DNA of 64,000 bases from positions 1,054,001 through 1,118,000 of the forward strand of contig NC_070561.1 in NCBI RefSeq assembly GCF_026914185.1, in the 5' to 3' direction. This document shows positions 7,301 to 50,385 of this stretch, piece by piece. Made by a program: the position numbers and the translations under genes. The stretch's first letter is position 1, and each line of letters starts with the position of its first letter. The notes under the pieces were generated by a model, which saw only the letters and a program-made list of their open reading frames with translations, was not told the origin of the DNA and did no database searches. This DNA is from Puccinia triticina. Its lineage: Eukaryota; Basidiomycota; Pucciniomycetes; Pucciniales; Pucciniaceae.

Positions 7301-10300
7301 GAAGCAAGGTGATCGGGGGCGTTCTGCTTTTTGCTAAGGATGGTAGGGAGTTGGTGATTGAAACAGCGGTTAAGGCGGCCTCACCCCACCATTCTGCTGC
7401 CATGTTTGCATGCAGAAGGATACATTGAGTCATTTCGATGACGGTGCAATTAGCTCTCTCGGCAATTCCGTTGTGTTGCGGAGTGTAGGGTGGTGAGATG
7501 TTGTGCTGTATCCCTTCTTGCTGAAGAACTTCCCCCAGTGCGTTGCTGCAGAACTCGCCTCCTCCATCGGTGACGATTTTCTTGACGTCGTTGCCCGTCT
7601 GTTTTTCGAACTTGCTTTTGAAATCAAGAATCGCGTTGGCTGCTTTGGATTTTTCTTTCAGGAGGCTAAGGTGGATGTACCCGGTGTGTTGGTCGACTAT
7701 GGTTAGGAAGTAACGGCAGCCGCTGTTTGTTGCTGGTCGAATCGGTCCAACTATGTCACCGTGTATGACTTCTAGCGAGGCTTCGGTTGGAGAGAATCTC
7801 CCTTTGAACGGCAACTTGATCATTTTTCCTTGCATGCAGGCTGAGCATGAGGTCTTCTCTCTAGGCAGATCGATCGGTCCAAGCATCGTCCTGATCCTGG
7901 CTGCGCTTGCATGGCCCAGTCGTTGGTGCCAGGTCATAAAGGTGTTGATTGGGGCTAGGACTGTTGTTGATAAGGCGACCGTGCTGGGCTTCTTCACGCC
8001 TTCGACCTTGAAGAGATTCTGAGTCATGTTGATTATCATGGAGTGCTTCCCGTTAAGCCTTACTGTCATTTGACCGTCTTGGCTGAAGATTTCCGCCTTT
8101 TCCTTGATGAGTTGCGCGAAAGAAATCAGGTTCGTAGACAGGTTGGGAACATAAAGAGCATTACGAAGTATGATCGAAGTGTTGTCTTCAAACTCAAGCT
8201 TGACCGTGCCTCGCTTTCTTGCCACCATCTCGGGATTTTCGGCACCCGTTCCCGTCACGACAAACACGTTAGTGGGAGCCGAGTCGGTGAAATATGCCAA
8301 AGAGTTGAACATATGCTGACTCGCACCAGAGTCAAGAATAATTGAGTCCTTCTCAACATGTCCGGACGTGATGTGGTATGCATAGCTTTGCTCGCCATCA
8401 TCCTGCTGGTTGCTTCTGACTGTTGTGTTAAGATTGGTGGCTCTTTTCTTTGATTGAGTCGAGGCTGTTCGCAGTTCAGGGTGCAGAGTCCAACACTGGT
8501 GCTCCTCATGCAACGCTTCAGGGTTGTGTCTCCCGTTCTTGCATGCTATGAAAGGCCTTTTTCTGGAGGTTGTGGCGAGAGCTGTTCCGGAAGGAGGTCC
8601 TGATGGTGGATTTGGTCCGTTAGTGATCGTTTTCATTCTCGTCACTTGCTCATGGTTGGCGATTAATCTGAGCTTGTCGAGCAGGAGAAATGGGTTGGAC
8701 AGTGTTTCCATGTCGCCCAAGATCCTTTCCATGATTATAGGTCTCTTCTCAGTGATCGTTTCAATGATGCTCACGCTTATGAGCTCGTTCATGACGCTGA
8801 GCCCAATGGTGCTGATCTCAGCCAGGGACGCCTCCACTTTGATGATGTACTTGAGGAGATCATCGTTGTAAGAGATTCGGACATATTGCGACCAGACGCG
8901 GTACATACCGTAGATCGTGGCTGTGGCGTAGTTAGTTTTCAACCGGTTCCATATCTTGTGGGGATCGCGTCCACAGGTGCTGGATAAGCTAGTGAGGATT
9001 TCGGGAACGATCTTCAAATTGAGAATGAGCCATGCCTCAAGTTTCTGTTCCTTGATCTTGTCATCATTCGATTCGGCTGTGTCCTTTTCCACGACAGGCC
9101 ATAACTTCTTGAACTCCAAATACGCACTCATGGCATTCTGCCAATTGGCATAGTTGCTGCCGTTGAAGGTTGGAATCACAATAATTTCCTTTTCTTCCTT
9201 CTTGTTGGTGACAGCTGTTCCAGGAGTTGTAATGCTGATTGGAGGAAGAGATCCTTGTCGGGTGGCGGTCGGCATTTTCGATCCTGCTCCTAGTTGCTGC
9301 GGGTGATGAATGAGGTTGCTTGAGCAGTCGAGACTGTAAATCTGTAAAATTTGGGACAACTAAGATAATGTGATTTCATGTCAGATGAATGAGCTGAGGC
9401 TATGTACAACGGAAAGTTCATCCTTTCATGATCTGATAGAGATGGAGTGAAGAGATTATTCACCTAAGAGCAGGCCGGTTTGCCGTGCTTCTGAGTTTAT
9501 ATGAGAAATAGAAGAAAGGAGAGAACACGAGGTCTTGGGGAGAAACGAGAAAGGAAGGGATCGGCTTTGGACAAAGAGAATGATCTGTTGTCTCTTATGG
9601 TCTGCACGCTTGTGGTGACGATTTATGATTGCAACAAGTCGTTCCGGTTAAGGCTGTGGCTAAAGGTCCATCTTGGTCAGTCTCAATCATATGATGGCCT
9701 GACTAGGACTTAAAGGTGGACTCACTCGTCGGTCGATAGACTTATACGAGCGGTGAGGCTGGCTGGGCGGTTGGTTATTCTGTGGCTTAAAGAACTGTGT
9801 AGACGATGAAGCTATTAGTCTGGTGTCTGTTCTTTCCGCCGGGGCTCAGGCCCTTTAAGTACTCATGAGAGCGAAGATCTTGGAATCAAGACTGACCTGG
9901 AGTTGTCGTGTCCTCCGGCTGTGGCTTGTACCCTCAGGGTGTCGTTGCCTGCATCACCTGCTGTAGCTGTTGCGAAACAAACTCGGAGTTAGCTACCGAG
10001 CTTGTGGCTTGTTTTGGTGTGACTGTTTGGAGGGATGAAACACTGTTGCTTACGTTTCTTAGCATCAGGCTCTGTTTCTCCTCTGCGCCTCTTGGCGGGT
10101 TGCTTTACCAAATCAGTATTCTGACAGATTATTTGCAAGTCTCTGAGGATGGTTGAGATGTTGATATCGGGTGGCTCCCATATGGCCTTGTCGTGTATCG
10201 CGTCACTCTTGATTTCATCACGCTTGGACTCGTTTTCGTCATCTTCTTGTGGTTTGTTGGCATAGTGCCTTCTATCAATTGATTCGTTAAGTTCTATCAC

Positions 10301-10820
10301 ACTAATTCTCAAATTCTCAAGATATTTTAAGGCAAATTGAGTCCTAAAAGAAAATGTGGATTGTCCTTGGACATGAGATAATTCACGTGATTTTTCGTGA
10401 TCGAGTTTGTCAGCCTAGTTGATAGACCAATTATTGAATCGAAGCCTATTCGGTTGGAGGATGTCTGGTTTAGTTTTCTTGACTGCTGGTGAATGGTGGT
10501 GAGCGGGTATCTCGAATAAGGTTTTCAAGCAGTCTTCATTTTTCTTTTCGGTGTTCTGTGAACTTGAGAATCGTGTCAGGAAGGTGAACCGCGAGCGCGA
10601 AAGCCCCAAGCCCATGAGGCATCGTTAAGTATGGGAAGTGAGATGAAAGGATGACGAACCAATCGAACCACTCGATCTCCACTTTATCAGAACTAGGCAA
10701 CGAAGAGGAGCCAGGACGCCGACGCTGATGAGATGATACTTCCTGTTCGTCCGATCGAATCGAATGGTTGGGAAGCAGCTTGCGCGCCAGCTTTTCCTGT
10801 TTAGCCTGATGTGAGACCAT
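4305..10820 (-). CDS. unrecognised 185-aa protein, split by Copia
   Basis: The exons are 10820-10660, 10562-10428, 10343 down to 10127 continuing at 4394-4393, and 4347-4305. With the Copia element and one GATTA duplication removed, the frame stays open for 185 residues. The last intron has a GTTTATC donor, a CTAAC branch-like site and an ATCAG acceptor. The protein is basic at the N terminus (KQEKLARKLL), has an amphipathic middle (QFALKYLENL, ISVIELNESIDRR) and an acidic patch (QEDDENESKRDE). I do not recognise the family. The element lies in the same orientation about 17 codons from the end, so the disrupted allele would read ILRDLQII and then 44 LTR-encoded residues, stopping at 9989. The exon 1/2 junction is the least certain. 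The start lies 271 bp from the divergent HET-C start. Confidence 0.6.
4400..5183 (-). repeat. 3' LTR of Copia C1
   Basis: A 784-bp direct repeat of 9343-10126. It encodes the last 46 codons of the element's polyprotein, up to the stop at 5046. Compared with the partner LTR it has lost two CpG sites through G-to-A changes and gained none at the other differing positions. Confidence 0.95.
5046..9275 (-). CDS. Copia Gag-Pol polyprotein
   Basis: The frame is open for 1437 codons from 9359. The Met at 9275 (residue 29) is preferred because the earlier one lies inside the LTR. Counted from 9359, the parts are: Gag (about 60-300) with a C-x-NG-x-HNP-type Cys/His cluster; aspartic protease DSGA at 343-346; pre-integrase zinc region HQRLGH with CSAC; integrase acids in GDIVGP, VTDGGGEF and GIAERAN; RT at about 850-1100 with CHVDDIVI (usual YVDD with His for Tyr); and RNase H with VDSDW, STEAEY and VDNQGAIDLA. 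The C terminus lies in the 3' LTR and carries KRRR and KKRK clusters ten residues apart, a bipartite nuclear-signal pattern. No frameshift or stop is present, so it is potentially functional. Confidence 0.95.
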   Translation of the reverse strand: MPTATRQGSLPPISITTPGTAVTNKKEEKEIIVIPTFNGSNYANWQNAMSAYLEFKKLWPVVEKDTAESNDDKIKEQKLEAWLILNLKIVPEILTSLSSTCGRDPHKIWNRLKTNYATATIYGMYRVWSQYVRISYNDDLLKYIIKVEASLAEISTIGLSVMNELISVSIIETITEKRPIIMERILGDMETLSNPFLLLDKLRLIANHEQVTRMKTITNGPNPPSGPPSGTALATTSRKRPFIACKNGRHNPEALHEEHQCWTLHPELRTASTQSKKRATNLNTTVRSNQQDDGEQSYAYHITSGHVEKDSIILDSGASQHMFNSLAYFTDSAPTNVFVVTGTGAENPEMVARKRGTVKLEFEDNTSIILRNALYVPNLSTNLISFAQLIKEKAEIFSQDGQMTVRLNGKHSMIINMTQNLFKVEGVKKPSTVALSTTVLAPINTFMTWHQRLGHASAARIRTMLGPIDLPREKTSCSACMQGKMIKLPFKGRFSPTEASLEVIHGDIVGPIRPATNSGCRYFLTIVDQHTGYIHLSLLKEKSKAANAILDFKSKFEKQTGNDVKKIVTDGGGEFCSNALGEVLQQEGIQHNISPPYTPQHNGIAERANCTVIEMTQCILLHANMAAEWWGEAALTAVSITNSLPSLAKSRTPPITLLLKIRPSMTFFKPFGCRAWILKDKVKRDRKFDPIAWEGTLLGYANDYLAYRVLRHEDRAIVISRHVQFDENVFPHCAAVNRSLDTSSEAEEAVPIFKSDPILPFKEESDHPEAAQEDQDEEQDDFDKSPVEDHPTSPEPGKRWVYVNNFTPAKKITSNINESNIIEGKRQQKQICYITISADPKSHNQAMKSQERLHWIEAELKEVNNMKKHQVWIERQRRSSDSPIASTWAYRKKLRPDNQIVKYKARICAQGFRQTFGVNFKLKYAPTGKAASLRLLLSFAVNCDLKIHQLDVRSAFLTCPLEDTVTLLPPQGYDCPTGTIFELRKAIYGLKQASLAWYKRLSGYLIKIGFAVLVSDLCVFHRASAPATWLYCHVDDIVIISSDPLVFKSQMEEEFDIKYLGRASFLLGMNIDRSDDFLHVHQTQYIERKLNEFGLENARPASCPMNPKVHLKAATEKEAAEFASMNINFCALIGSLNYLSVLTRPDISYAVSVLSQHLEKPGVQHLHAAQQVFQYLLGTKQVGLVFRKAPSLEIRAHVDSDWGNCPDTRRSATGYAVMTKSQLISWKACRQATVSLSSTEAEYKALSDLGREIAWLVSLISEINLNYKPEKLFVGVDNQGAIDLAKSETSQNGFRTKHMDIRLHFVRELVTSKLIVLHYIRTINNNTDFLTKPTGRCTIRRSLTAIGVTNPPSASSLAARCNPACQNTDLVKQPAKRRRGETEPDAKKRKQQCFIPPNSHTKTSHKLGS
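9331..9342 (-). other. primer-binding site, tRNA-Tyr anticodon arm type
   Basis: Directly adjoining the 5' LTR, the minus strand reads GATTTACAGTCTCGAC. Its complement, GAGACTGTAAATC, matches the anticodon loop and flanking stem of mature tRNA-Tyr (loop CUGUAAA, anticodon GUA). The zero spacing from the LTR is what a primer site should show. The tRNA identity rests on knowledge of fungal tRNA-Tyr and needs checking against the same genome. Confidence 0.65.
9343..10126 (-). repeat. 5' LTR of Copia C1
   Basis: A 784-bp partner of 4400-5183. Read from the host side on the minus strand, its first 138 bases are an open frame in phase with the interrupted host gene, ending at the stop at 9989. Six sites differ from the other LTR, all transitions at CpG. 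Confidence 0.95.
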
Positions 10821-26499: not shown

Positions 26500-27690
26500 A
26501 TCACCATCCAGCCATCAAGTGGTTACGTACACAACCCTCTCAATACCCGGCACACACAGTCCGGTCACCCAGTGGATCTCAATCCACTGGATGACCGGAC
26601 TGTGTGTGCCGGTCATCAAGTGGGTTGTGCACCTCTCAATGACTGGCTTGTGCCAGTCATCAAGTGGGTCTCAGTCCACTTGATGACTGGCACAAGCCAG
26701 TCATCAAGTGGGTCTCAGTCCACTTGATGACCGGCACAAGCCAGTCATTGAGAGGTACACAACCCACTTGATGACTGGCACACACAGTCCAGTCATCCAG
26801 TGGGTACACACCCCTCTTGATTCCGGCACACACCAGTCATCCAGAGGGTAAACAACCCACTCAATGACCGGCACATGCCAGTCATTGAGTGGACTGAGAC
26901 CCAATGACTGGCACAAGCCAGTCATTGAGTGGGTCTCAATCCACTCAATGACCGGCACACAACACACCAGTCATCAAGTGGACTGAGACCCGATGACTGG
27001 CACAAGACAGTCATTGAGTGGGTCTCAATCCACTCAATAACCAGCACACACCGTTTATCGAGTGGGTACACAACCCTCTCAATGCCGGCACACACCGGCC
27101 ATTGAGAGGGTAAACAACCCACTCAATGACCGGCACACGCCAGTCATTGAGTGGACTGAGACCCACTCGATGACTGGCACAGTCCGGTCATCAAGAGGGT
27201 ACACAACCCCTTGCTGACCGGCAGAATCATTGAGTGGGCTGTGTACCCTCTTGATGACTGGTGTGCGCCGGCTTTGAGTGGGTTGTGTACCTCTCAATGA
27301 ATGGTGTGAGCCGGTCATCAAAGGGTTGTGTACCCTCTTGATGACCGGACTGTGCCAGTCATTGAGTGGGTCTCAGTCCACTCGATGACTGGCATGTGCC
27401 GGTCATTGAGTGAGTTGTTTACCCTCTCAATGGCCGGTGTGTGCCGGCATCAAGAGGGTTGTGTACCCACTCGATAACCGGTGTGTGCGGGTCATTGAGT
27501 GGGTTGTGTACCCACTCAATGACCGGACTGTGCTGGTCGTCTAGTGGATTGAGACCCACTCAATGACTGGCATGCGCCGGTCATCAAGGGCTTGTGTACC
27601 CTCTTGATAACCGGTGTGTGCTGGTCATTGAGTGGGTTGTGTACCCTCTCAATGACCAGCACTGTGACCCATTCGATGACAGGACTTGAC
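26500..27690. repeat. alternately inverted satellite array
   Basis: About 1.2 kb is built from a roughly 27-bp arm resembling CACTCAATGACCGGCACA, repeated dozens of times in alternating orientation. Two types of symmetry centre result: one at GGC-ACA-GCC and one at GTGGGT-ACACA-ACCCAC or a CTCAGT variant. Adjacent arms can pair almost perfectly, so the array is a string of potential hairpins. Long open frames across it (for example 26704-26967 minus) are repeat by-products. Confidence 0.9.
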
Positions 27691-27705: not shown

Positions 27706-27920
27706 TGTTTAGTTGTCTGTTAGTCTGCTACCATGATGTATCACCACAGTATGGAGGGCTGTCGGATCAACCCATGAGCACTACCAACCAACCACCCAGC
27801 TGGCAGCCACAAGCGTCTGTAGCCTAGCTGGTAAAGGCAGCACTCTAGTATGTGTCTCAGCATAGCTGAGGTTGTGAGTTTGACTCTCACCAGACACATC
27901 TTCATTTTACAGTCTCTACA
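27706..27920 (+). repeat. 5' LTR of the TRIM
   Basis: 215 bp, starting TGTTTAG and ending CTCTACA. It contains the tRNA-like block at 27813-27898 followed by a TTTT run. Confidence 0.88.
27813..27898 (+). other. tRNA-like sequence in TRIM LTR
   Basis: A-box TAGCCTAGCTGG at 27820-27831 and B-box region AGTTTGACTCT at 27877-27887. A perfect 5-bp T-stem (GTGAG/CTCAC), a 3-bp D-stem (GCC/GGC), a near-complete acceptor stem (GCGTCTG/CAGACAC) and a stem-loop CTCAGC-ATA-GCTGAG resemble a class II long variable arm. The anticodon arm is poorly paired, so this is probably not a working tRNA. TTTT about nine bases later could end a Pol III transcript. Confidence 0.7.
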
Positions 27921-27932
27921 GGTTATGAGCCC
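27921..27932 (+). other. primer-binding site, initiator tRNA-Met anticodon arm type
   Basis: GGTTATGAGCCC begins immediately after the 5' LTR. Its complement GGGCTCATAACC is the anticodon loop and stem of initiator tRNA-Met (anticodon CAU), the site used by half-tRNA-primed Copia elements such as Drosophila copia and yeast Ty5. Confidence 0.75.
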
Positions 27933-28131
27933 AGAGCTACCTGAGCGCTACTTGCTTAAAATAGAGACTTGATGAATTTGTGAATGCTTACTTGTAAGAC
28001 CACAAAAACCCCTAAAAGCCTACATCTAGATCACAGGTTCAATCCCTACGCTGATCATATCTCCTGGGTCTCATTCCCACTCTCTTTTGGGGTCAATCCC
28101 CACTTCCCATCATGTAGCAAGGGGGGGGGGG

Positions 28132-28346
28132 TGTTGAGTTGTCTGTTAGTCTGCTACCATAATGTATCACCACAGTATGGAGGGCTGTTGGATCAACCCA
28201 TGAGCACTACCAACCAACCACCGAGCTGGCAGCCACAAGCGTCTGTAGCCTAGTTGGTAAAGGCAGCACTCTAGTATGTGTCTCAGCATAGCTGAGGTCG
28301 TGAGTTCAACTCTCACCAGACACATCTTCACTTTACAGTCTCTACA
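28132..28346 (+). repeat. 3' LTR of the TRIM
   Basis: 215 bp, starting TGTTGAG. It is about 96 per cent identical to 27706-27920. Its B-box region (GTTCAACTC) fits the consensus better than the 5' copy, but the T run after the tRNA-like block is interrupted (CTTTA). Confidence 0.88.
28239..28324 (+). other. tRNA-like sequence in second TRIM LTR
   Basis: Same layout as 27813-27898. The B-box is GTTCAACTC and the A-box TAGCCTAGTTGG, both fitting Pol III consensus. The long variable-arm hairpin is unchanged. Confidence 0.7.
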
Positions 28347-35056: not shown

Positions 35057-36702
35057 AGCACCACAACGTGTCCTACAATCTCCAGTGCAGGCACGCAGGC
35101 CGCCAGCTTGGATGCGGAGACCGTCAGCCCTGATTCTTTGATTCGAAAAAGAATGCGCTCCAAAGTGGTGGCGTATTCCCAGATGAAGCGGCGTATGCCG
35201 GAATGCCACGAAAGAACCTCGCCACCATAATCAGACACGGGGCCCTTAATGCCGCCGTCATTGATGAAGATTCCCGCGTGATCCGGAATCTCGTCCTGGA
35301 GAATCCAAACCATCTGCGCTTGGTAGACCGCAACCGAGTTCGTTGCTCCCTGGGGCAACCGCGTGAGCTGAAACCTACCAAGAGGGGTGTCGAAAGTGGT
35401 GAGAGGTCGAGAGATTGGATGTAACGCGCGCTCATCGTAGCCACCCATAATGTCACCTAGCCCGTAGCAGGCACGGCCTGCGAATGACTCCACAAACTCC
35501 TCAGTGGCCGGTGGAACGCCGGCGTCTTTGATTGTGACCTTGTTCAGTGGCTGAAGATCGTGTACAACGCGTATTTTGCCGTTGCTCTTGAGGACGCAAA
35601 AGACCGGGGAGGAGTAACTTGACGTCGACTGCTCATAGAGGCCCGTGGCGACACGCTTGCGGATGACTTTGATGAATTCATCCAACTTAGCTGCGGGAAT
35701 AGGAATTTTGCGCTTCTGCCACGGCTCGTGCTCCACGACGGGGATGATGTATGGTAACCCGTAGGAGTCCTTGAGCAAACCTCTCTCTTCCGACGTAAAC
35801 GCTATCGAAAGATTCCGTTCCGCCAAAACATTCTTGAGCAAATCCAACTCAGCTGGCCACAGCCAGCCTTCGGGGCCGAAGTTGACAACAGCAAGCCGTT
35901 CTTCCGTGACGCGCCCCTTTGGAACAAAAGGACAGGCTAGCGAACGGGGAAGGCCGCGATACGGGTCGCGCGAAAGAGGCGGGCGTTGTAGAGGAGGGTT
36001 CAGATTTTGAGGCATAGCTTGGTTGACCGGCTTGATCTTGCGCGCCACCGGCTTGTACTTCGCGGCGAAGGAAAGGAACTCCCCACGCGTCCATGCATCC
36101 ACCAGTGCCGCCTGCTCGTGATAACGCAGCCCGTGCTCCATCAAACACCACGTGCGATGCTCCGCGCGATCTCGAAAAGCCGCCTTATCTGAAAACGTAA
36201 AACCAAACGGAAGGGCTTCGCTCACGAGTGTGGCCGGATGTAGAGTTTCAAAAAATTGCGCAGCATCACGCCTCGGAGGTGCACATTGGGAGGAACTTAC
36301 TTCTATTCCCAATTGCCTCCACGGGACACCGAATTCCACCACGCCCTCCTCACAATCCAAAGAAAACCTTAGTTTCACCTCATTTCGGAGGATCTTTAGT
36401 TTTTCCTCGTTGCGGAGGCTCGGGAGTTTAGGCTCATTGCGGAGTCTAGCTAGATTACCCTCATTGCGGAGGACGCCATAGGACGTATCTAGTTTATTCT
36501 CTTCACGGAGACGCGGTCGAGAGGTTGAAAATCCATCTGGAACAAAAAATCGGGGCAAATAACCAGTGGGGCTCACAGATGTGGCATGTAGTGCTAACAA
36601 CGATGCAGTAGAGCCCTGGGAGGTGCATAACTGGGAGGAACTTACTTCCTGTCTCCCAAACCTCCATAGATTCCCTATATCCTCCATTCCACCCTGCGCC
36701 AT
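35014..36702 (-). pseudogene. Ty3/gypsy reverse transcriptase fragment (G1)
   Basis: A 562-codon open frame. The RT domain occupies roughly the second half: PWQKRKIPIPAAKLDEF, SSPVFCVLKSNGKIRVVHDL, FDTPLGRFQLTRLPQGATNS, and the catalytic region reading GIFINDGG. A gypsy RT should have Asp-Asp here; the first Asp is Asn, which would abolish activity. The N-terminal part contains two related blocks (RQEVSSSQLC and GIEVSSSQCA) matching the LTR-start motif, so the frame crosses rearranged LTR-derived DNA. The last residues before 35056 are inside the 1.5-kb insertion. Confidence 0.75.
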
Positions 36703-37072
36703 TAAACCGTTGCCAAAAGAAACGCGCCAAGAGCCGCGCCGGAGAACAGGAAGGAACCTTGAGAAAGCGCGCCAAGAAAGGCGGGAACAAGAAGTGAACT
36801 GAAATCTGATGATGTGTATTTGAGGGTTTTTGTATTTTCTTCATGTTTTTCAGATTTGATATTCTGATTATTGAGTGAGAAAGGAAAGCAAGACTGGTGA
36901 ATCTCTTGGTGATGAGTTGACCCAGCGGCGCGTGGGCGAGATCCCAGATTAACACGGCCACTCGACGGGTCAACTTTACTCATAAAAAATGACGCCCCTC
37001 GACCGGGTCGTCGCGCGCCGTGTTTGAGCGCGTCAGAATAGCCTTCTTTCCCTTTCCAGGGAAGTCGCGCTC

Positions 37073-37557: not shown

Positions 37558-37957
37558 TGAAGCGGGGCTCTTCAGGCTGGTAGAGGCTCAGACGAAAAGA
37601 GGCGCGAAGGAAAGGAAAACGAACTGATCTCTGAATTTTCAAGAGACAGGGCGAACTGGGGAGAACCCCTACAAAAGAGGCCACCTTAAATGGTGGCCAT
37701 GAAACTGAACTAGACAAAACAACTAGACAAGGGGCGCCAAGCCCCTGCGGCTAAAACATGACGAGAGAATGGGATACAGATCGTAACTCCGGGCCGAACC
37801 CGGTAGTGCGTCATGGGGAGCCGGCGAGGCCGAACCCGGTAGTGCGTCATGGGGAGCCGGCGAACCTCCTGCGTCCGGCAGGAGTCCACGTGGTCTCCTC
37901 GTGGTCGTGAGCGTACAGGGGGACTATGTCTCCCTGTATAACTGTAGCCCTGCTACA
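37558..37957 (-). repeat. 3' LTR of G2
   Basis: 400-bp direct repeat of 43370-43769. Internal 36-bp tandem units lie at about 37793-37828 and 37829-37864. Confidence 0.95.
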
Positions 37958-37969
37958 ACATCCCCCCCT

Positions 37970-40900
37970 CTAAACGGGGGCCGTCCCGGACCCTGATGGT
38001 GGTGGGCCCAACCGGAGCTTGAGTCTCCGAGCCGGCGGGTTAGCCGGGGGTGTTGGGGTAGCTGAACTCGTCACCTCGGCAGAAGCCGACGTGTTTCTCT
38101 TGGTCTTTGCTAAGACTTTTGTTTTCTTCAATAAGTCCCGAGCCACTTTGGCATCGGCACGCTTTTCCCGCTGAGCTATAGCGGGTGGCGCGGCCCACAT
38201 GTCATTGACAATGAGCGACCGGAGTGCTACCGGTCGTAGACTGTTGCCGTTAACCGGTCTTGGGTACTCGACTGCGTCGTGATCAGCAATGATGTAAACA
38301 TTATTGTCTAATACTTTAGTGATGGTGAATGGTCCGAACCACCTCGGGCTTCCCTTGGTATGCTTCTCATTTCGGAGCTTCACGGCTTGGCCCTCGACAA
38401 GACTGTCCAAGTCTCGTGCAAAATGGGTTTTCTCATCGAAGGCTGTCTTGTTCCTCGAGGCGCGCACGGCAGTGTTGCCGGCTGCCTCCGTTCTGGTCTT
38501 GTTGAGCTGCTCAATACGGTTTCTGAGCTCGCTCTGGCCTGGGATGGCTGGCTCTGCAGCGATCATACGCCTGCGATCTTGGGGCAGTCGCGGCTTTACT
38601 CCGTAGAGTAACTCGAACGGGGAAAACCCGCTGCTATCGCTAATGTGAATTCTAGTGGAAAACAGGGCGGCCGGGAGGACGTCTTCCCACTTGGAAGGGT
38701 CCCCGGATTTGTTCAAGCGAAAGATAGCGGCTTCTAATATGCCATTAAACCGTTTGCTCTTACCATTTGTCTGTGGATGGTACCCTGACGTTCGGACTGG
38801 TTTCATTCCGGCTGCTGCCAGGAATTTCTGGAATCCTGCCGAGAGGTAGTTAGACCCTCGGTCTGTGAGGAACTCTTTAGGTACCCCAAAAGGGGTAACA
38901 ATCTGATCAAAAATTGCTTGAGCGATCTCAGCCGCTGAGGCTTCCTTCAGAGGGACCGCTACCGGCCATGAAGTGCAATGATCGATTGCAGTAAGAATCC
39001 ACTTAAAGTGGCTCTTATAACTCTCCGTCATCTGGATTAGGTCTGACGACCATCTTTCGAACGGAAGGACTGCCGGCAGAGGCTTCTGCAGGGCAGTTTC
39101 TTGGTTTGGGTGTGGCCTTTCATGAATTTGGCAGGACTCACACGTACGGATGTAACTCTGAACATCATCGTACCTCTTCGGCCACCAACCCCGACCCCGC
39201 AGGATCTGCAAGGTGCAATCCCGGCTCCTGTGGCCAAGATCGTCGTGGACAGACCGAAGAAGATCAAATCGATACGCGAACGCCACGAAGGGCGATCTTT
39301 CTGGCAACCCCGGCCGGCCCAGATACATCAAGGTCTCAGCTGCGGGATCGTACTCGAAGAACTTCAAATTCTGTTCTGCTCGGGTCACCAATCGCTCTGG
39401 GATCCCTTCTGGTAAGTCCCTGTTTTCTAACAGGTACGGGATGATGAGGGGCCAGTCGGATTCGTGCAGCTTATCCGTGACCTCCTCCATCAGCGCCAGG
39501 TCACTCCTTCGTGAGAGCGCATCAGGGACGATGTTATCAGCTCCCTTCTTGTAGCGAATTTCTATGTCCATCTCGGCGAATTCCTCGATCCAGCGAAGGA
39601 GGCGTTTCGTCGGCAGGAGCTGCGTGGAGAGATAGGCTAACGAAGCATGGTCAGTATAAACAACCGTCGTTTCTACGGCTCCGTCCAGGTATACGTGCCA
39701 CTTCCTCCAGGCATGGATAATCGCTAATAATTCTCTTTCTTGCGCCGGATAGTTCACCTGCGCCTTGTTTAGCTTACAAGACTCGAACGCTACCGGGTGG
39801 AGGACAAGGTCCTCTCCGTCTTGCAACAGAACTGCTCCCACGGCGAAATCCGAGGCGTCGGTCTCCATTATGAAGCGCTTGAGAACGTCCGGCATTAGGA
39901 GTACCGGTGCGCTCGTGAGTGCTTCTTTCAACTGCTTGAAAGCCACTTCTTGGACCGGGAACCACTGAACTGGTTGCTTCTTTGTTACGCCGCCTGCTGT
40001 TAGGTCGTGTAACGGGGCCGCTATCTTAGCGAAATTCTTCACGTATCTGCGGTAGAACCCACAGAGGCCCAAAAACGAGCGCACGTCGAAGACCGTCTGA
40101 GGTCTGGGCCACTCGCGTACGCAAATTAACTTCTCGTCCATCGGCCGAATCGAATTGTATCCGATAACATGGCCGACGTATTGGATCTCTCTCAACCCAA
40201 AGGAGCATTTCGCTCCACTACATTTCAATTCCTCACGCCGGAGGACCTCTAGAACTCGCTCGACGTGCTTGATGTGCTCAGCTCCCGACTTCGAGTAAAT
40301 CAAGATGTCGTCGAGGTATACCTGAACGAACTCGTCGATAAACTCTCGGAGCAGCTGCGTCATCATTCTCTGGAATGTACTAGGGGCGTTAACAAGCCCA
40401 AACGGCATCACCAACCATTCGAAATGGCCGTACTTGGTTCCGAAAGCGGTTTTAGGTACGTCAGATTCAGCTATTTTCATTTGATGAAAACCCTGCTGTA
40501 GGTCTATCTTCGAAAAGAACCTGGCGCCCCTGAGCGCATCAAAGCACTCCTGGATTATCGGCAACGGGTGCCGATCTTTCTTGGTAAGGGAATTAACCTT
40601 TCTGTAATCCACACACAGCCGCACCTTCCCTGACGTTGGGTGCTTGACCATTACTATAGGCGACGACCATGGAGAGGTCGATGGGCGGATAAAACCAGCC
40701 TCCTGGAGGCCGGCCAGCCGCTCTTTCAGCGTACCCAATAACGCCGGGGACAATTGTCTCACCGGCTGGTGGACGGGCTGGGCTTCGCCGGTATGGACGA
40801 GGTGCTCGATTGTCCTCGGCTTATCCGAGACTTTCGATATTGGTCCGAAGACTTCTGCAAAGCGAGTCACTATCAACTGCAAAGATTCTGATAACTGGGC

Positions 40901-41757
40901 GTCGGTTCCGAACGCCGTAGGTAAGCCTACTGGCTGTTCATCCCTTGGGCCTTCTACTCCTTCTGACTCTATGAGACAGACGAACGACTCCCTAGCGCCC
41001 TCGTAGAACTCGTGGCGGCGGATCGATCGCGGGAGGAGCACCTCATCGTCGTCACTCATCACGGCAAGTTCGTGAGTCAACGTGCTACATAATGACGAAG
41101 AGGCTAAGCTAAATTCTACTACGTTACCTGTCAGGCTTTGTAGGTTCCAAGTATTGGTACGCCAGTCTGTTGAGACGACATTGCTCGCGATCCAATCTCG
41201 GCCTAAAATAATGTCGTAGCTGGACAACGGTGCCAGTCGACAAACTACCGCGAAGCTGATCTCCGCTAAAACGAAACGGACAGTAGCTAATCTGTCATCA
41301 AGAATCCGATCCCCGAAGGCTCCGGTAACCCTAAAGGACTCGGGAGAACGACTGATCAGTAAACCGAGGTCCGTGACGAAAGAAGCAGATACATAGGACG
41401 ATCCAGCGCCCGTATCCAAGAGGACCCTGGCCAAACGGCCCTCAATTCTATGATGGAACTCAGCGCGGACCCCTTGGGCTTCAACGCTGCTCAACTCCAT
41501 TGCGTGGTCTCCATCAAGACACAGGCAATCACTTACAACATCGGTGGCGACGCCCGGCGGCTCCCCGGCAGGCTCCAACTCATCCGAAGCGGCTGTCCCC
41601 ATGCCTGGGCGATCAGCAATCTCAGCTGTTTCTAACTCACGGTGGCTCTGCTCACAATGAGGCTCAGGTAGGTCTCTCTCTAACTTAATGGTGTTTAAAT
41701 TGCAAGAAAGAGAAGGAACTACGGCTAAAGTCGGTGGGAGAGACGATTCACCACCGA
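37970..41757 (-). CDS. Ty3/gypsy Pol (protease, RT, RNase H, integrase)
   Basis: The first Met of the frame is at 41602, but the frame is open up to the gag stop, so it is probably made as a Gag-Pol fusion. In order: protease (LLDTGAGSSYVSASF), RT (RLCVDYRKVNSLTKKD, FSKIDLQQGFHQMKI, YLDDILIYSK), RNase H (METDASDFAVGAVLLQ), integrase zinc region (HDDLGHRSRDCT with CESCQIH), catalytic core (WSSDLIQM, LTDRGSNYLS, and a Lys-Ser-Lys variant in HPQTNGKSKRFN), and a C-terminal chromodomain-like or GPF-type segment (GSPRWFGPFTITKVL). The stop at 37970 lies 13 bp before the 3' LTR. No disabling lesion was seen. Confidence 0.95.
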
Positions 41758-42954
41758 CTACTCTTTTTTTAATTTAGGCTTTATGTTCTTAGCCTCCCAA
41801 GCCAACTGGGCTTCGGTCTTGGGCTTTGGGCACTTCTGGACCCGGTGGCCGAGTTCCTTGCAGTTATGACAAGGGAACTCGCCTTTCTTCTTGTTGGACG
41901 AGTTTCCGTCTCCCTCGGCTCGGCGCTTACCCGATCCCGAACCGCCGGCTACTGGCGCCGCTTGCGACTCGCGGTATCGCTGATCGTGAGTGACCGCGTG
42001 CATGAACACAGTGTCCATGTTGATCAGGGTGCCGAGGATCAACTGATTGCTGACGAATTCTGAGACCTTTCGACTTAGGCCGGTGTTCAAACGTTGGATG
42101 AAGGCCGTCTGCTCGTCGTATGCGAAGCCGATAGCGTTCGCCTTGGTCTGCCACTCGCAGAACCTCTCGTAGAACAACTGGACGGCCTCGTTCGGTTGTT
42201 GCTTCAACCTATTCAACTCGGCCGCGATCATCGCCGGGGTAACGCCTATTGCGTTGAGGCGAAGCAGCCAGACTTTGAACTCCGCCCAGGATTTAGGACG
42301 GGTCCCGGCTGACGCTGCAGCCCGCCAATCTCGAAAAGCCTTGCCACTGAGGCGAAGGCCGGCGACTCGATGCCAGATAGCGGGGTGAATGCAGCGGTCT
42401 TCGAGCAGCATCGCGACGGTTTCTAACCAGTCAGGGCCACTCTCACCCGGGCCACCCGTGAACACGGGGTTATCTTTCTCGGGCCATCCTTTGAGGGCCT
42501 TGATCGGGTCCTTCTCGAGGACCAATTCTTCTCCGAGGTCGTTGAAGTACTCGTCGCCCTCTTCAAGGGATTCTTGGTGGTTGCCTGCCGACTGGTGGGC
42601 GGGCTGAGCCTGGGACCCGACTCGAGCGTCGGGCGGCGCGGATTCTTGAGGTGGGTCGACCTTCATCTGTTTAAAGGCGGTCGTCAGGGCTGCCTCCAAC
42701 TTCCCAACGGTCTCTGAGGAGGAACCTACTGAATTCCCCTCGCCATTTTGTAACAGGTTCAACGCTGACTGGTCGCACAAGGAGTTATGGTCGACGAGCC
42801 ACTGACGTTGTTGGTCCGACATCTCCTTCACGTCCGCGCCAGTGTAAAAACTGCCGTTAAAAGGAGGGTTCGGGCGGTTAGCCTCGACTTCGGCCTTCGG
42901 TTCCGCCGTTCCTTTGCCCTTCGGGCTATGTGCGACCTTTCCTAGGTTCGACAT
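41758..42954 (-). CDS. Ty3/gypsy Gag
   Basis: 398 residues. The central capsid-like part has VFTGGPGESGPDWLETVAMLLEDR-type sequence, FRDWRAAA and LKQQPNEAVQLFYERF. A basic region precedes one CCHC zinc knuckle, CHNCKELGHRVQKC, near the C terminus. It ends PKLKKE and a TAG. The last sense codons contain a run of seven A in the phase needed for -1 slippage into the pol frame. Confidence 0.93.
   Translation of the reverse strand: MSNLGKVAHSPKGKGTAEPKAEVEANRPNPPFNGSFYTGADVKEMSDQQRQWLVDHNSLCDQSALNLLQNGEGNSVGSSSETVGKLEAALTTAFKQMKVDPPQESAPPDARVGSQAQPAHQSAGNHQESLEEGDEYFNDLGEELVLEKDPIKALKGWPEKDNPVFTGGPGESGPDWLETVAMLLEDRCIHPAIWHRVAGLRLSGKAFRDWRAAASAGTRPKSWAEFKVWLLRLNAIGVTPAMIAAELNRLKQQPNEAVQLFYERFCEWQTKANAIGFAYDEQTAFIQRLNTGLSRKVSEFVSNQLILGTLINMDTVFMHAVTHDQRYRESQAAPVAGGSGSGKRRAEGDGNSSNKKKGEFPCHNCKELGHRVQKCPKPKTEAQLAWEAKNIKPKLKKE
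41762..41768 (-). promoter_or_regulatory. -1 frameshift slippery heptamer A AAA AAA
   Basis: On the minus strand the gag codons TTA AAA AAA GAG TAG contain A AAA AAA in the X XXY YYZ register. A -1 slip gives AAA AGA GTA GTC and continues without a stop into Pol. The stop follows one codon later. A downstream pseudoknot was not evaluated. Confidence 0.7.
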
Positions 42955-42959
42955 CTACT

Positions 42960-43369
42960 TCGCAAAAAAAACCACGAACAAAAGTAAGCCAATGTTCTGT
43001 TTTTATATGTTCTCTTAGAGCACTATGCTTGATTCTAAGCCTCAACCCCAGAGGTGTCAACCACTAACTGGTCGACTACTCCAAACAGGTAGAACTTCTC
43101 TGATACAACGGGACGCTGCCGCTTTGGCCACGGAGGACACGAACTAATAAAGTGGGATAAGGAAAGCTCGACTAACCGAGGGTAAGGCGGTGGGGTCGAA
43201 TTATTAAACCGCGATAAGAGTACGCAGCCGGGGACGAGAAAGTGTTCCGAGAAAGAAATGATCGGAAAGCGAACTGCGACGGGTGTGGAATGTAAAAGAG
43301 TAAAAAAAATTTCTATTGTTTATAAGAGTAGGGTTTTTGTTGGATCGTAATATTAGCTCTCGCTACCAC
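42960..43369 (-). other. G2 leader between 5' LTR and gag
   Basis: About 410 bp of untranslated leader, beginning with the primer site at about 43356-43368 (plus strand GCTCTCGCTACCA). Confidence 0.8.
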
Positions 43370-43769
43370 TGAAGCGGGGCTCTTCAGGCTGGTAGAGGCT
43401 CAGACGAAAAGAGGCGCGAAGGAAAGGAAAACGAACTGATCTCTGAATTTTCAAGAGACAGGGCGAACTGGGGAGAACCCCTACAAAAGAGGCCACCTTA
43501 AATGGTGGCCATGAAACTGAACTAGACAAAACAACTAGACAAGGGGCGCCAAGCCCCTGCGGCTAAAACATGACGAGAGAATGGGATACAGATCGTAACT
43601 CCGGGCCGAACCCGGTAGTGCGTCATGGGGAGCCGGCGAGGCCGAACCCGGTAGTGCGTCATGGGGAGCCGGCGAACCTCCTGCGACCGGCAGGAGTCCA
43701 CGTGGTCTCCTCGTGGTCGTGAGCGTACAGGGGGACTATGTCTCCCTGTATAACTGTAGCCCTGCTACA
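43370..43769 (-). repeat. 5' LTR of G2
   Basis: 400-bp partner LTR carrying the promoter end for the minus-strand transcript. It has the same 36-bp duplication as the other copy. Confidence 0.95.
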
Positions 43770-43773
43770 AGCT

Positions 43774-44578: not shown

Positions 44579-44595
44579 CCTCTGTCAGGTTGTGG

Positions 44596-47500
44596 TAGGG
44601 ATGAAACCGGGTCGGGTTCGGGTCGGAAAACAGTGCCCGGACCCGACCCGCAAATAATTGCGGGTCGGGGCGGGTCGGGTCACATTTTGGTTAACACTGC
44701 CCAAACCCGACCCTGCTTTTGATCAATTCGGGTTCGGGTCGGGCCGGGTCGGGTCTCGGGTCAGATAACGGGTCAATGCATAATATGCATTTCTGTAAAA
44801 TCTTATCTACTCAATAGCTTCTTGTATGTTTTTTTAATGGAAAATAAAGCGACTATTCATAAAAAAAGAAAGGAAACATCATTCGGAGTCAAACTCAGAA
44901 TCATCAGATTGCTCTTGGTCACACAGGCCTTCGTCGGATGCAATCCAGTCTTGCCCACAGACAAGGGCTTCGAGCGTTTCGGGGTTCAGTCGGTTTCTAG
45001 AAGGGCTGAGCACTCTACCCCCAGTTGAAAAAGCTGACTTGGATGCAATCGAAGTCATCGGGGCTACTAAGAAGTACTTGGCCAGTTTTGAAAGTGTTGG
45101 GAATCGGACTGAGTTGAACTTCCACCAATCAAGGATATCGAACGATGGAGTATCAACTGGGAGATTTTCTTCTTGCAAGTAGAGATCAAGTTCTGCTGTC
45201 GCTGTTACTGATTGAACAGTCTTTGACATTTTACCGGCGAGGTACTCCTTGAATCGGCTTTTCTCTAGATCATCAAAGGTTTTCTTTTGAGAATCCAACC
45301 TTGTACGGTCATCGGTGCTCGATAAGACATCTTGAGACGCTGGAGATGCTGCTAAAGCTTTAGATGCTTGTTTCAAGCTGGAAGCTAGCTCGTTGAACAA
45401 GTCGTACAGGTTTTTTGATATGTGATTGATTTTTATTTGAACTTCTGTTTTGTCAAGGTCAGATTTGCATTGTTCGAGGAGAAGGAACTCAATGAGAGAT
45501 AGTTTATAGCGTGGGTCAAAGACAAGAAAAACTGCAGCCGACTCTTCAGGGTTGTTCCAGTATTTATTGTACTTCGCTTGCATTGGTTTAACTAGATCGG
45601 ACATTTGTTTTGGACCAGAACTGAGACTTTCGTTGAGCTTCCTGTTGATTCTAACTATGTTAACATAGAGGATGTGGGCTGTTGGATAACGAGTCTTGCA
45701 TAGCTTCAATGTGGCTGAAGCAGAATAGTTGAGACCGAAGGATTCAACATCAGTAAGAATGAAATGCATAGGGATGACGAAAAAGAATGGATCTACCAGT
45801 GTCGAATATAGAAAGAAAATCTTTCATCATTGAGATCTCCTCCCACTCGCTGCGATCAGGACAGTTGTTATAATTTGCATCTTGCAACGCCAGATTTTCA
45901 AACGCCTCTCGGTACGGTATGGACGAGTTGAGCATGTGAAAGGTTGAGTTCCAGCGTGTGGGAACGTCAAGTATTGGTTGCGCTAGTTTTCCAATGTTGG
46001 TCAACTCAAGAGCTTCTTGGAATTGTCGCTTTCGTGAAGGGGTGCTTCTGATATATCGGACGCTGTCTTGGATCTTGGTGATGGCCGTCGAAAGTTTTTG
46101 CAAACCATCTTTCACAATCAGGTTGATTATGTGTGCGGCACATCGCACATGGAAGAACTTTCCTTCCATCAGTGGCGGGGATCGGCTTTTGTCTTGAAGT
46201 AATTGGTTGACTCGAGCAACAGCAACATCATTGGCAGCGGCGTTATCGACAGTAACAAAAGAGACTTTATCGATAGCCTTCCATTCAACGATGGCCGAGA
46301 AGAGCTGCTCCGCAATGACTAATCCCGTGTGGGGTGGTGGAAGCTCCTTGAAAGAGATGGTTTGTTTTTTAAGAGTCCAGTCGGACAAGAGGAAGTGGGC
46401 CGAGATCACCATGAACGGGATTTGGTTTGAAGTCGTCCAGAGGTCTGTTGTTAAAGCAATTTGATTGGCTTCGGCAATCTCAAGGGCAATATGTGCTTTC
46501 GTTGAGTGATACATCTCGATGATGTCTTTCTTGACAGTTATGCGACTATACAGCTTGAATTGAGGTTGTAACGAAGCAACGAATTGCTTGAACAGCTTAC
46601 TTTCAACCGACTTGAATGACCGTTCGTCCGTAATAACCATCTTTACAAGGAGTTCACACGACTTCTGTTGAGAAAAAACCCAGTTGGTTGGAGTGGAAAG
46701 CTTTGAAACTTTCAGCAAAGTCTGCTTGCTTCGGGAATGATAACCGCTGCATCGTTCGAGGTGTCTCCACAAGTGTTTTGTTCCGTACGAGCTTTTTGCG
46801 GACAGCGTAGTTTGGCAATATTGACAATGCGCTTTTTTGTCTTCGACTGTGTCAACGTTCAAACAAAAGAAACAACATAAATATATAATATATCAGATGA
46901 ATGAGAAAGTAACGACAAACCTTCGCCACTAGGCTTAAAGTGATTCCAAATCTCGCTGGTCGTTTTTTGCTTTTTTTGGCCTTGAGTCGAAGTGGTTTCC
47001 CCGGCCGACGTGGTTTGGGTGGAATCGATTCTGGAGGCTGTAGGCTTCTCTTGAGTTGCATATCTACGGTTTTCTTTTTCATTCGGTTGACTGGTCACCT
47101 GGATATCGTCTTGGTCGTCGGTTTTGGATCCAGAATCATCCGACTCGTCCTCTCCTTCTTGTCCTTGATTGATTGGCGGATCATTGGACTTGGAATCATC
47201 GTCAGAGATAGCTTCAACCTGCTTCTTGCGCTTGAGGGGCCTTTCCGGTGCTTTTTGCAATTGGGCGCGCGTCCTGGGCATGTTGAGTTGTCCGGTACCG
47301 GTAAGACACTGCCTTTGCTGAGTGAATTCAGTGCTGATGCCCCCGTGGACTAGAGTGTTGGCCTCCCGCGGGGGTTAATCAAATTCGCAGCACCGCAGTA
47401 TTTTTGTCGCGCCCGCGGCCTGCACCCGCCGGCGGGCACCTGCCAAATGTCGCGGGTCTGTAATCGGGTCGGCGGGTTGACCCGACAGCCAAAAGGGCTG

Positions 47501-47809: not shown

Positions 47810-47900
47810 CAGTACAGTGCATGAGAGGCCGTCCGGCTTACTTAAGCCTCAATGCCATTTTGAAGAGTTTCCTCCTTTCCATGACTGATGCTCAATGGAC
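47810..47900 (-). pseudogene. gag relic, downstream part
   Basis: Minus-strand sequence MERRKLFKMALRLK continues the relic at 54037-54480 once hAT B and one target copy are removed. A TGA replaces an expected sense codon at the join. Confidence 0.5.
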
Positions 47901-48394: not shown

Positions 48395-49231
48395 TGAAGG
48401 GATTTCACGAGAAGACCGCAGCACAAATAGGGCACTGTAAGCCCCCATCCCTGGAGTCTTACAAGAACCTTTCACAAGAGTTGTCACAGTATTACATAAG
48501 CTAAACAAGTACTTAGTCTCCTCCTACTCTTTCCCTAGTCCGGCAGAGAGCTTCACTCTCTCCCGGCTAGGTAAGCTACTTTCCATTCTTCTCATTCTCT
48601 TAGGTGTTCTAGTGATACTTACCATAGAGAGAGCTTCACTCTCTCCCGGCTAGATACCTGCAATACAGCCCCTACGTTGGTACTAGACGGTTTCTTAGGC
48701 TTTTGCCTTGTCTTTCGTGCCCCTCGACGACGACCAGTGAAGGACTCAAACGGAGTCCTTACAGGCACAGAGATGAGCCTTTGGGCTCGAGAGAGTACAG
48801 TGAGGGGGAGTGTGCTCACCGGATCAGCTTGGATAGTGGGCGCGGAAAAAACAGAGGAAGAACCGATGAGGTTGATTGCGCTGAACTAGACTATGGCAGA
48901 TATAGGCTAAATACACAGGGCAGACTTGTGGTTCGGAACACAATGAATATGCAAGGAAAACAATGGAAGGTGATGGAAAGTGATGGAACTCGGGTAAGGG
49001 AAACAGGTGACATTCTCACTATCACAGACAGAGCGCGCACGCACATAACAGACACAGTAGATCAGGAAAGCTATACAACACATCAGAACAGGGATCGAGG
49101 TCACAAGCTGAGGTAGGAGGGAGGCATGACTTGAGCTAAAAGGAGAGGATGTGGTTGACTTGAAGTGTGGATAGGAGTGACAGCTGGTTTGAGGATCATG
49201 AGGTAGAAGGAAGTGAGATAGAAATCCAACA
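48395..49231 (-). repeat. 3' LTR of C2, containing a solo LTR
   Basis: 504 bp after removing 48436-48763 and one GGCAC. Differs from 50386-50889 at about five places, mostly CpG transitions. Confidence 0.9.
48436..48763 (+). repeat. solo LTR inside C2 LTR
   Basis: 328 bp from TGTAAGCCCC to GGAGTCCTTACA with perfect GGCAC duplications (48431-48435, 48764-48768). It is related to the LTR family at 55318: it shares the same ends and two hairpins of the CCGGCAGAGAG / CTCTCTCCCGG type. Confidence 0.92.
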
Positions 49232-49479
49232 CCCCCCGTTCCTGATGCCGAATGAACCTGGGACCGGAATAGTCGAAGTTGCAGAGAGATCGAACTTAGG
49301 ATTGAGGAGATGATTGACTTCAAGAGTTGAGGGATTGAAGAGGAGATGTAGAGAAAGAAGAGGGTGAAGGAATGAAGGCAAGATTGATCGGAGAGCATCG
49401 AGTCGACAGTTGAAGAAGAAAAGAAAAAGGGAGAGAAGGCCGATTCGAGATTGAGAGAATGCGATCAGAAATAGCTGAC

Positions 49480-50336
49480 GTTCTCAAAATTCACGTTCAA
49501 CGTTGTTGATGTTGTAGCGTCCGCCATTGGGGGTACAGAACCAGGTGAAGTTGCCTTTTGGTTTGGCCTCTTGAGGTTGGTCGACAGTCAAGTGGGCTGA
49601 CTCGGTCTTTGGGCCGGGCGCCTTCTCGGGAAACTTGACCCAAAAGTTGGTGGGTCGGTGGCCGGATTTCTTGCAGTGCGGACAGATCGGACCGGTTGCG
49701 TTAGTGTGAAGAGCGGTCTGAGCGATCGATCCAGGTGAAGTCTTGGTATTGAGTTGATTTTGGGCGGCAAAATCTTCAAGCTTCTTGAGGACTTGATCGA
49801 ATGGTCTTGAAATTCATCGAGATGTTGGTCTTGAAGGAATGAAACTCTTGAGGGAGTTTGTCGAGCATGAGGATGGTTCGGACTTGATCATCAAGGACAA
49901 GTCGTGAGAGATTGATCTTTTGATTGGCGGATCGAATCGAGGGCATGAACAAGAGAAAATTGTTGTAATCAACTGCAAGGAACTGTTTGAGAGCAGTGGT
50001 CTTGGCAGTGAGGTCGTCGCCAGCATACTTGGACTTGAGGAGTGACCATAACTTTTGGCCGTTGAACTTGTCGGTGTCGGGTAAAGAAGAACTGACATAG
50101 GCTAGAACTTCCTGACTGAGTAGCTGGATGATCTCGGCGTAGGCGTCCTCGTTGTATTTGACATACAGCTTAAAGTTGTCCTTGTCTTTTTCGGGGTCAG
50201 GAATGGCGACGGTATTGTAGACAACATCCAGATATTTGAGTTTGTGAAGCTTCGCCTCGATCGGAAGAAGCCAAAGCGCATAGTTCTTGTTGGTGAGGAG
50301 GATCTTTGTTTCGCGGACGACCAATTCTGATGACAT
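49480..50336 (-). pseudogene. Copia Gag of C2, frameshifted
   Basis: The first part (50336-49776) reads from MSSELVVRETKILLTNKNYALWLLPIEAKL through QLLSQEVLAYVSSSL and LDDQVRTILMLDKLPQEFHSFK, a typical UBN2/Copia Gag. After NFKT the frame shifts by one to FDQVLKKLEDFAAQNQ and runs to a TGA near 49487. The zinc knuckle reads CPHCKKSGHRPTNF, with Phe in place of the last Cys. No pol sequence follows. Confidence 0.75.
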
Positions 50337-50372
50337 GGTGGGAAGAGGTTGAAGAAAAGTCGGAGCGGAGTT

Positions 50373-50385
50373 CGACTGTTAATCG
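50373..50385 (-). other. primer-binding site, tRNA-Asn anticodon arm type
   Basis: Immediately next to the 5' LTR the minus strand reads CGATTAACAGTCG. Its complement CGACTGTTAATCG is the anticodon stem-loop of fungal tRNA-Asn (loop CUGUUAA, anticodon GUU), a 13-nt match. Confidence 0.75.

What the first reader, a model, noticed from the sequence alone, without database searches (positions are those of the whole stretch)
9327..50385. Three Copia-type elements primed by anticodon arms of three different tRNAs
Immediately next to the 5' LTR, element C1 has GATTTACAGTCT (9331-9342), C2 has CGATTAACAGTCG (50373-50385) and the TRIM has GGTTATGAGCCC (27921-27932). Their complements are the anticodon stem-loops of tRNA-Tyr (loop CUGUAAA), tRNA-Asn (CUGUUAA) and initiator tRNA-Met (CUCAUAA). 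Half-tRNA priming with initiator Met is established for Drosophila copia and yeast Ty5. What stands out is one genome using at least three primer identities while keeping the same anticodon-arm geometry. That suggests a lineage-wide priming mode in which elements switch tRNA. Seen: the sequences and their zero spacing. Known: fungal tRNA anticodon arms. Inferred: primer use and switching.
Basis: partly seen in the sequence, partly recalled or inferred. Interest (0 to 1): 0.9.

Follow-up and report, generated by a model that had tools for sequence, protein, structure and literature searches.

The report
Rust retrotransposons primed by tRNA halves
These rust-fungus jumping genes appear to start copying themselves from broken halves of three different tRNAs, which was already reported for rusts in 2024; a related group of elements carries an unusually long, 50-base match to a tRNA that seems worth following up.

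Summary
Directly after the 5' LTR, C1, C2 and the TRIM carry exact complements of the anticodon arms of this genome's tRNA-Tyr (14 nt), tRNA-Asn (15 nt) and initiator tRNA-Met (14 nt). The genes found for them (5, 6, 5) all have an intron inside the matched stretch, so the match is to spliced tRNA. Genome-wide the patterns occur 804, 36 and 425 times; reversed controls 14, 4 and 0. A reverse-transcriptase tree separates Copia primed from the iMet 3' end from a group holding both Tyr-half and iMet-half users.

It is not new: Kojima 2024 (PMC10886601) reports such PBSs for mature tRNA-Tyr, -Asn, -Ile and -iMet in rust Copia and 'Helenus' TRIMs, with primer switching. The window's TRIM fits Helenus.

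Two additions I did not find in print: complementarity to all three half-tRNAs ends at position 27, beside G26; and gag-bearing, probably gypsy-like elements carry a 50-nt complement of mature tRNA-Tyr (27-76, CCA included), 386 copies, none running 9 bases further in a separate search. A copying stop at modified G26 would explain both; it is untested.

The parts
4400..10126 (-). C1, full-length Copia element (LTRs 4400-5183 and 9343-10126; target-site duplication GATTA on +)
   Evidence: LTR alignment 99.2% identical; boundaries and duplication; gag, integrase, RVT_2 order
9329..9342 (-). C1 primer binding site GATTTACAGTCTCG = complement of spliced tRNA-Tyr positions 27-40
5046..9359 (-). 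C1 open frame, 1437 aa stop to stop: gag PF14223, gag_pre-integrs, rve, RVT_2
48395..50889 (-). C2, Copia-type element with a gag-like frame only, target-site duplication TTCTT; 3' LTR interrupted between about 48436 and 48763
50371..50385 (-). C2 primer binding site CGATTAACAGTCGAA = complement of spliced tRNA-Asn positions 27-41
49776..50378 (-). C2 gag-like open frame (PF14223, E 5e-10)
27706..28346 (+). TRIM (Helenus-type), LTRs 27706-27920 and 28132-28346, no coding capacity seen
27921..27934 (+). TRIM primer binding site GGTTATGAGCCCAG = complement of spliced initiator tRNA-Met positions 27-40
27813..27898 (+). tRNA-like sequence inside the TRIM 5' LTR (Rfam RF00005, 38.6 bits)
28239..28324 (+). 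tRNA-like sequence inside the TRIM 3' LTR (Rfam RF00005, 42.8 bits)
37558..43770 (-). Comparison element: Gypsy element whose PBS TGGTAGCGAGAG (1 nt from the LTR) matches the 3' end of iMet, i.e. ordinary full-tRNA priming

Best explanation
C1, C2 and the TRIM are retrotransposons of the copia/Ty5 priming type. Shown by sequence: the stretch after the 5' LTR is an exact 14-15 nt complement of the spliced anticodon arm of tRNA-Tyr, tRNA-Asn or tRNA-iMet. Inferred: the tRNA is cut in the 3' side of its anticodon stem, after position 40 (Tyr, iMet) or 41 (Asn); the 5' half anneals and its new 3' end primes minus-strand DNA. Within Copia the mode belongs to one reverse-transcriptase group, and tRNA identity changes inside it; the gag-only and TRIM elements presumably borrow the enzymes of autonomous Copia with the same PBS. 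Inferred addition: plus-strand strong-stop synthesis copies the attached tRNA half back to position 27 and halts at G26 (dimethylated in most eukaryotic tRNAs; recalled), renewing the PBS each round and fixing its far edge.
For: All three PBSs cross the intron site (37/38) of their tRNA genes: 5 Tyr, 6 Asn and 5 iMet genes; intronless forms gave 0 hits (for Tyr). Counts against reversed control: 804/14, 36/4, 425/0. Of 20 sampled Asn sites (of 35 outside the window) 19 sit at an LTR-like end. Of 35 RVT_2 hits on contigs C1-C3, 12 have an iMet-half PBS 2.58-3.02 kb upstream on the same strand, against 0 in three wrong placements. Of 40 Copia 5' regions read: 16 iMet 3' end, 9 iMet half, 6 Tyr half, 9 none; 3 of those 9 are iMet 3' end with one mismatch. 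Trees: 3'-end users (in one search with 5 unlabelled rows) split at 100/100 from the half-tRNA users. Far edge: after dereplication 26 of 28 match at position 27 but 8 of 28 at 26; G26 in all three tRNAs.
Against: No RNA data: neither cut tRNAs nor primed cDNA were seen. No Asn-type element with a reverse transcriptase was placed on the tree. 6 of 40 Copia 5' regions had no recognised PBS. In the smaller tree the five iMet-half users as one side of a branch have only 71/58 support, and the trees hold long branches. Only 1 of 16 testable RVT_2 hits had a Tyr PBS upstream. The iMet-half families ending in TA have no LTR end fixed by a second LTR. One Asn hit (L130) is not at an LTR; one Tyr row (L003) mismatches at 27 and one iMet row (L102) at 28 and 27. 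In the 50-nt type 8 of 12 copies also match at 26, so a stop exactly before G26 is not clean there. That G26 is dimethylated in this fungus and blocks these enzymes is recalled or inferred, not tested; the base of the anticodon stem is also at 27.
Confidence: 0.88

Rival explanations
1. The half-tRNA PBS is kept only by selection for pairing with the anticodon arm; its edge at 27 is simply the base of the anticodon stem, and no modification-dependent stop is involved.
For: Position 27 is both the last stem base and the neighbour of G26, so the half-tRNA data alone cannot separate the two. In the 50-nt type 8 of 12 copies match at 26 as well.
Against: In the elements with the 50-nt tRNA-Tyr complement the PBS begins at the tRNA 3' end, yet it ends at the same place: 386 copies match 76-27 with up to 3 mismatches and 0 match the stretch 43-18, nine bases further, with up to 2 mismatches.
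Confidence: 0.35
2. The strings are remnants of tRNA-derived sequence (SINE or tRNA retropseudogene) that happen to lie next to LTRs.
For: Rust genomes are rich in tRNA-like sequence inside LTRs (PMC10886601).
Against: They lie flush after many different LTR ends, the iMet type at a fixed distance upstream of reverse transcriptase; 0 copies run on into the 5' part of tRNA-Tyr.
Confidence: 0.02
3. The intact tRNA pairs through its anticodon arm as a docking site while another RNA end (self-priming or the tRNA 3' end) is the primer.
For: No RNA evidence here shows which 3' end is extended; self-priming exists in Tf1 (PMC7175516 passage).
Against: The complement starts at the first base after the LTR, as expected if the end at 40/41 is extended; copia and Ty5 are described as using an internally cut tRNA (PMC5371799 passages; exact copia positions recalled).
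Confidence: 0.06

Closest known systems
Rust Copia families and fungal Helenus TRIMs (Kojima 2024, PMC10886601)
   Same: Anticodon-loop PBS for tRNA-Tyr, -Asn (also printed as Asp), -iMet; intron-bearing genes, mature tRNA; iMet 3' end in another Copia family; primer change between lineages; TRIM LTRs with a tRNA-like unit and 5-bp duplications (abstract, sections 15, 16, 21 and passages read; figures not held).
   Different: It also reports tRNA-Ile, not sought here. In the parts I read there is no reverse-transcriptase tree, no genome-wide PBS count and no edge at G26, and Gypsy PBSs are named only for animals.
Drosophila copia and yeast Ty5 half-tRNA priming
   Same: Copia superfamily, an internally cut tRNA as primer, anticodon region (PMC5371799 passages).
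   Different: Both use iMet (for copia recalled); here Tyr and Asn as well, and the tRNA genes carry introns inside the PBS match.
Plant half-tRNA Copia lineages Osser, Bryco, Gymco-II (1/2 tRNA-Met) and Bianca (1/2 tRNA-Ile)
   Same: Half-tRNA priming, found only in certain Copia lineages (PMC6317226 passages).
   Different: Other tRNA identities apart from Met; plants.
Retroviral 18-nt PBS set by m1A58
   Same: PBS edge fixed by a reverse-transcription stop at a modified tRNA base (PMC13191261 passages).
   Different: Here the proposed stop is G26; the 50-nt PBS implies that position 58 does not stop synthesis.

Membership tests
Half-tRNA-primed Copia (copia/Ty5 type) | Copia domain order gag - integrase - RVT_2 | tested here: met
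   C1. C2 shows gag only and the TRIM no coding frame, so for these two it is not met by themselves
Half-tRNA-primed Copia (copia/Ty5 type) | PBS next to 5' LTR complementary to a host tRNA anticodon arm | tested here: met
Half-tRNA-primed Copia (copia/Ty5 type) | Cleaved 5' tRNA half used as primer | not testable with these tools
   needs RNA or cDNA ends
[quoted passage not shown]
   RF00005 at 38.6 and 42.8 bits, cut-off 29; ARAGORN
Helenus TRIM | Short interior with PBS and polypurine tract | tested here: met
   interior 27921-28131 begins with the iMet PBS and ends in a run of G before 28132
Helenus TRIM | 5-bp target-site duplication | tested here: inconclusive
   flanks GCTCT and GCTCC, 4 of 5 bases equal
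Helenus TRIM | Moved in trans by Copia | not testable with these tools
   only the shared PBS type supports it
Ty3/Gypsy (the 50-nt PBS elements) | gag with CCHC knuckle after the PBS | tested here: met
   open frame downstream in L007; several relatives are named CCHC-type, one named retrotransposon gag whose neighbouring locus tag is named aspartic peptidase. No Pfam family matched
Ty3/Gypsy (the 50-nt PBS elements) | RVT_1 reverse transcriptase before integrase | not tested
   only 1.5 kb downstream was held

The most novel reading that the evidence does not exclude
In this rust, PBS length is set by where the copying enzyme stops on the tRNA primer, and the stop is G26. Half-tRNA Copia get a 14-15 nt PBS, and a gag-bearing gypsy-like lineage primed from the 3' end of whole tRNA-Tyr gets a 50-nt PBS (positions 76-27) because position 58 does not stop it. 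That would be a far longer regenerated PBS than the usual 8-18 nt (recalled), with PBS edges serving as a genomic readout of tRNA modification.
Probability: 0.45. Interest if true: 0.7.

Novelty: already known. Interest (0 to 1): 0.42.

Why it matters
The reported pattern confirms on a whole genome what was published for rust Copia and Helenus in 2024, with counts, splice-site evidence and a reverse-transcriptase tree. The added part could matter more: if PBS edges mark where reverse transcription halts on a tRNA, old retrotransposons record which tRNA bases carry blocking modifications, and the 50-nt PBS would show an element that gets past position 58.

Tried and rejected
Chance or tRNA retropseudogenes: rejected by controls and by 0 hits for the extended tRNA-Tyr stretch. 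Intronless tRNA-Asn and tRNA-iMet gene patterns: 0 hits each, which led to the intron patterns; introns longer than the allowed gap would be missed. A motif scan for any anticodon-arm PBS (CA plus pairing rules) gave mostly noise and was dropped. Placing Asn users on the tree failed because no reverse transcriptase was held for them. The Rfam tRNA search scored only 63 of 6857 candidates, so no full tRNA set of this genome was made; tRNA-Ile and other identities were not sought. Pfam on the gag of the 50-nt type found nothing. Literature: ten searches; I saw no G26 edge and no 50-nt PBS in the listings or in the passages opened, but most subscription journals are not held. The Ty5 primer paper was not held.
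Full report
What was checked. The three strings are at the stated coordinates and directly follow the 5' LTRs. C1 is a full-length Copia (4400-10126, minus strand), LTR alignment 99.2% identical, with gag, integrase and RVT_2 in one 1437-aa open frame. C2 (48395-50889, minus) has TTCTT on both sides, a gag-like frame only and a 3' LTR split by about 328 bp. The TRIM (27706-28346, plus) has no coding capacity that I saw.

The tRNAs. In the genome holding the window (122.8 Mb, 18 contigs), patterns for intron-bearing genes found 5 tRNA-Tyr genes and 6 tRNA-Asn genes; a pattern with optional intron found 5 initiator tRNA-Met genes, all with an intron. Intronless forms gave 0 hits (Asn, iMet; for Tyr the stretch 43-18). 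The exons of 3 Tyr, 3 Asn and 2 iMet genes were read. The intron lies between positions 37 and 38 (numbering assigned by hand from the stems). C1 matches spliced tRNA-Tyr 27-40, C2 tRNA-Asn 27-41, the TRIM iMet 27-40. Because the match crosses the splice junction, the source must be spliced RNA.

Genome-wide counts. Tyr 12-mer 804 against 14 for the reversed control; iMet 14-mer 425 against 0; Asn 13-mer 36 against 4. Up to about half of the Tyr hits may belong to the 50-nt type below (386). Of 20 Asn sites sampled from the 35 outside the window, 19 sit after LTR-like ends of several kinds; L130 does not.

Coupling to Copia. The RVT_2 search scored 150 of 1760 candidates, so it is a sample of the best-scoring ones. 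Result: 16 with the iMet 3'-end PBS TGGTAGCGAGAG, 9 iMet half, 6 Tyr half, 9 none. Three of the 9 have the iMet 3'-end PBS with one mismatch, leaving 6 unassigned. By coordinates alone, 12 of the 35 RVT_2 hits on contigs C1-C3 have an iMet-half PBS 2.58-3.02 kb upstream on the same strand, against 0 in three wrong placements; for Tyr, 1 of 16 testable hits, control 0.

Trees. With 31 reverse-transcriptase pieces the 16 3'-end users (with 5 unlabelled) separate at 100/100 from a group of 4 Tyr-half, 2 iMet-half and 4 unlabelled rows. With 19 pieces the same split holds; the 5 Tyr users plus 4 unlabelled group at 96/96, four iMet-half users at 98/94, and all five iMet-half users as one side of a branch at only 71/58. 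The root is a midpoint and several branches are long, so deep placements are rough. This supports one group with the half-tRNA mode and at least one change of tRNA inside it. Asn users are not on the tree.

Edge at position 27. For Tyr and iMet, 27-28 lay outside the search strings; for the Asn sites, 27 and 41 did. Matches at 27 are 9 of 10 (Tyr), 20 of 21 (Asn, L130 included), 9 of 10 (iMet); at 26 they are 0 of 10, 8 of 21, 3 of 10. After dropping L130 and near-copies (41 rows to 40 to 28) the pooled values are 26 of 28 at 27, 8 of 28 at 26 and 10 of 28 at 25 (Fisher p 1e-6; rows are not fully independent). Position 26 is G in all three tRNAs. That G26 is dimethylated in most eukaryotic tRNAs and blocks reverse transcription is recalled.

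The 50-nt PBS. Four of the first eight Tyr loci were different: the string is the end of a complement that begins with TGG, the complement of the CCA that the three genes read do not encode, and runs from tRNA-Tyr 76 to 27. Allowing 3 mismatches there are 386 copies and 0 controls; the first 100 listed have no mismatch. In 12 read copies (9 of them exact over the 50 nt, 8 of these picked for that) the flanks are on average only 63% (upstream 30) and 49% (downstream 20) identical. After the block 8 of 12 match at position 26 and 1 of 12 at 25, so the edge here is 26 or 27, which is less clean than in the half-tRNA class. A search for the complement of 43-18, nine bases further, found 0 with up to 2 mismatches. 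A frame of over 350 aa starts 284-445 nt after the anticodon-arm string in L002, L007 and L008; in L004 none over 120 aa was listed. The L007 frame resembles Puccinia proteins, best 96% identical to P. triticina, several named CCHC-type. This fits a gypsy-like element primed from the 3' end of whole tRNA-Tyr. In HIV-1 the stop at m1A58 limits the copied tRNA stretch to 18 nt (PMC13191261 passages); here position 58 would have to be passed and G26 would be the stop. For the 3'-end iMet users the search string covers 76-65; the next base matches in 2 of 16 (counted by eye), which would fit the bulky modification of A64 in fungal iMet (recalled).

Prior work. Kojima 2024 (PMC10886601; abstract, sections 15, 16, 21 and passages read, figures not held; [quoted passage not shown] hordei show the same PBSs, that one uses the iMet 3' end, and that primer type changed several times. 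Plant Copia lineages with half tRNA-Met and tRNA-Ile are in PMC6317226 (passages); copia and Ty5 in PMC5371799 (passages). The finding as given is therefore already known. I did not see the G26 edge or the 50-nt PBS in print (searches), in a library that lacks most subscription journals.

Verdict. Observation confirmed, interpretation supported, not new. The part worth pursuing is the common edge next to G26 and the 50-nt PBS; the sequence facts are firm, the mechanism is a proposal.

Noticed in passing
Related loci L002, L004, L007, L008, L141-L148: A 50-nt complement of spliced, CCA-bearing tRNA-Tyr (27-76) close after an LTR-like end: 386 copies with up to 3 mismatches, control 0; 0 copies run nine bases further with up to 2 mismatches.
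   Followed up: partly
window 27813-27898 and 28239-28324; a further copy of the LTR at 59610-59825: tRNA-like unit inside the TRIM LTR, as in published Helenus TRIMs; by eye it has a long variable hairpin.
   Followed up: yes
window 37558-43770: Gypsy element with PBS TGGTAGCGAGAG one base after the LTR, matching the iMet 3' end for 12 nt.
   Followed up: partly
window 55318-58484: LTR element with duplication GATAC; after the 5' LTR comes a run of T with no tRNA match seen by eye, and the two frames tested hit no Pfam family.
   Followed up: no
window 48436-48763: About 328 bp inserted in the C2 3' LTR, with an inverted repeat GAAGGACTC...GAGTCCTT at one end.
   Followed up: no
window 26561-27666: About 1.1 kb of nested direct and inverted repeats, spacing often 44 nt, just upstream of the TRIM.
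   Followed up: no
window 63393-63561 and 34241-34392: A 21-bp tandem array and a 76-bp tandem duplication.
   Followed up: no
window 44879-46892 and 35014-36840: hAT transposase pieces with a BED finger, and a frame with an RVT_1 reverse-transcriptase match.
   Followed up: no
L072, L095, L097: iMet 3'-end PBS with a single change, CG to CA, as expected from decay of methylated CpG (interpretation inferred).
   Followed up: no
L141, L142, L145, L147 and others: Sequence after the 50-nt block could pair back with its end (such as CCTCAA...TTGAGG), a possible hairpin around the PBS; seen by eye, not folded.
   Followed up: no
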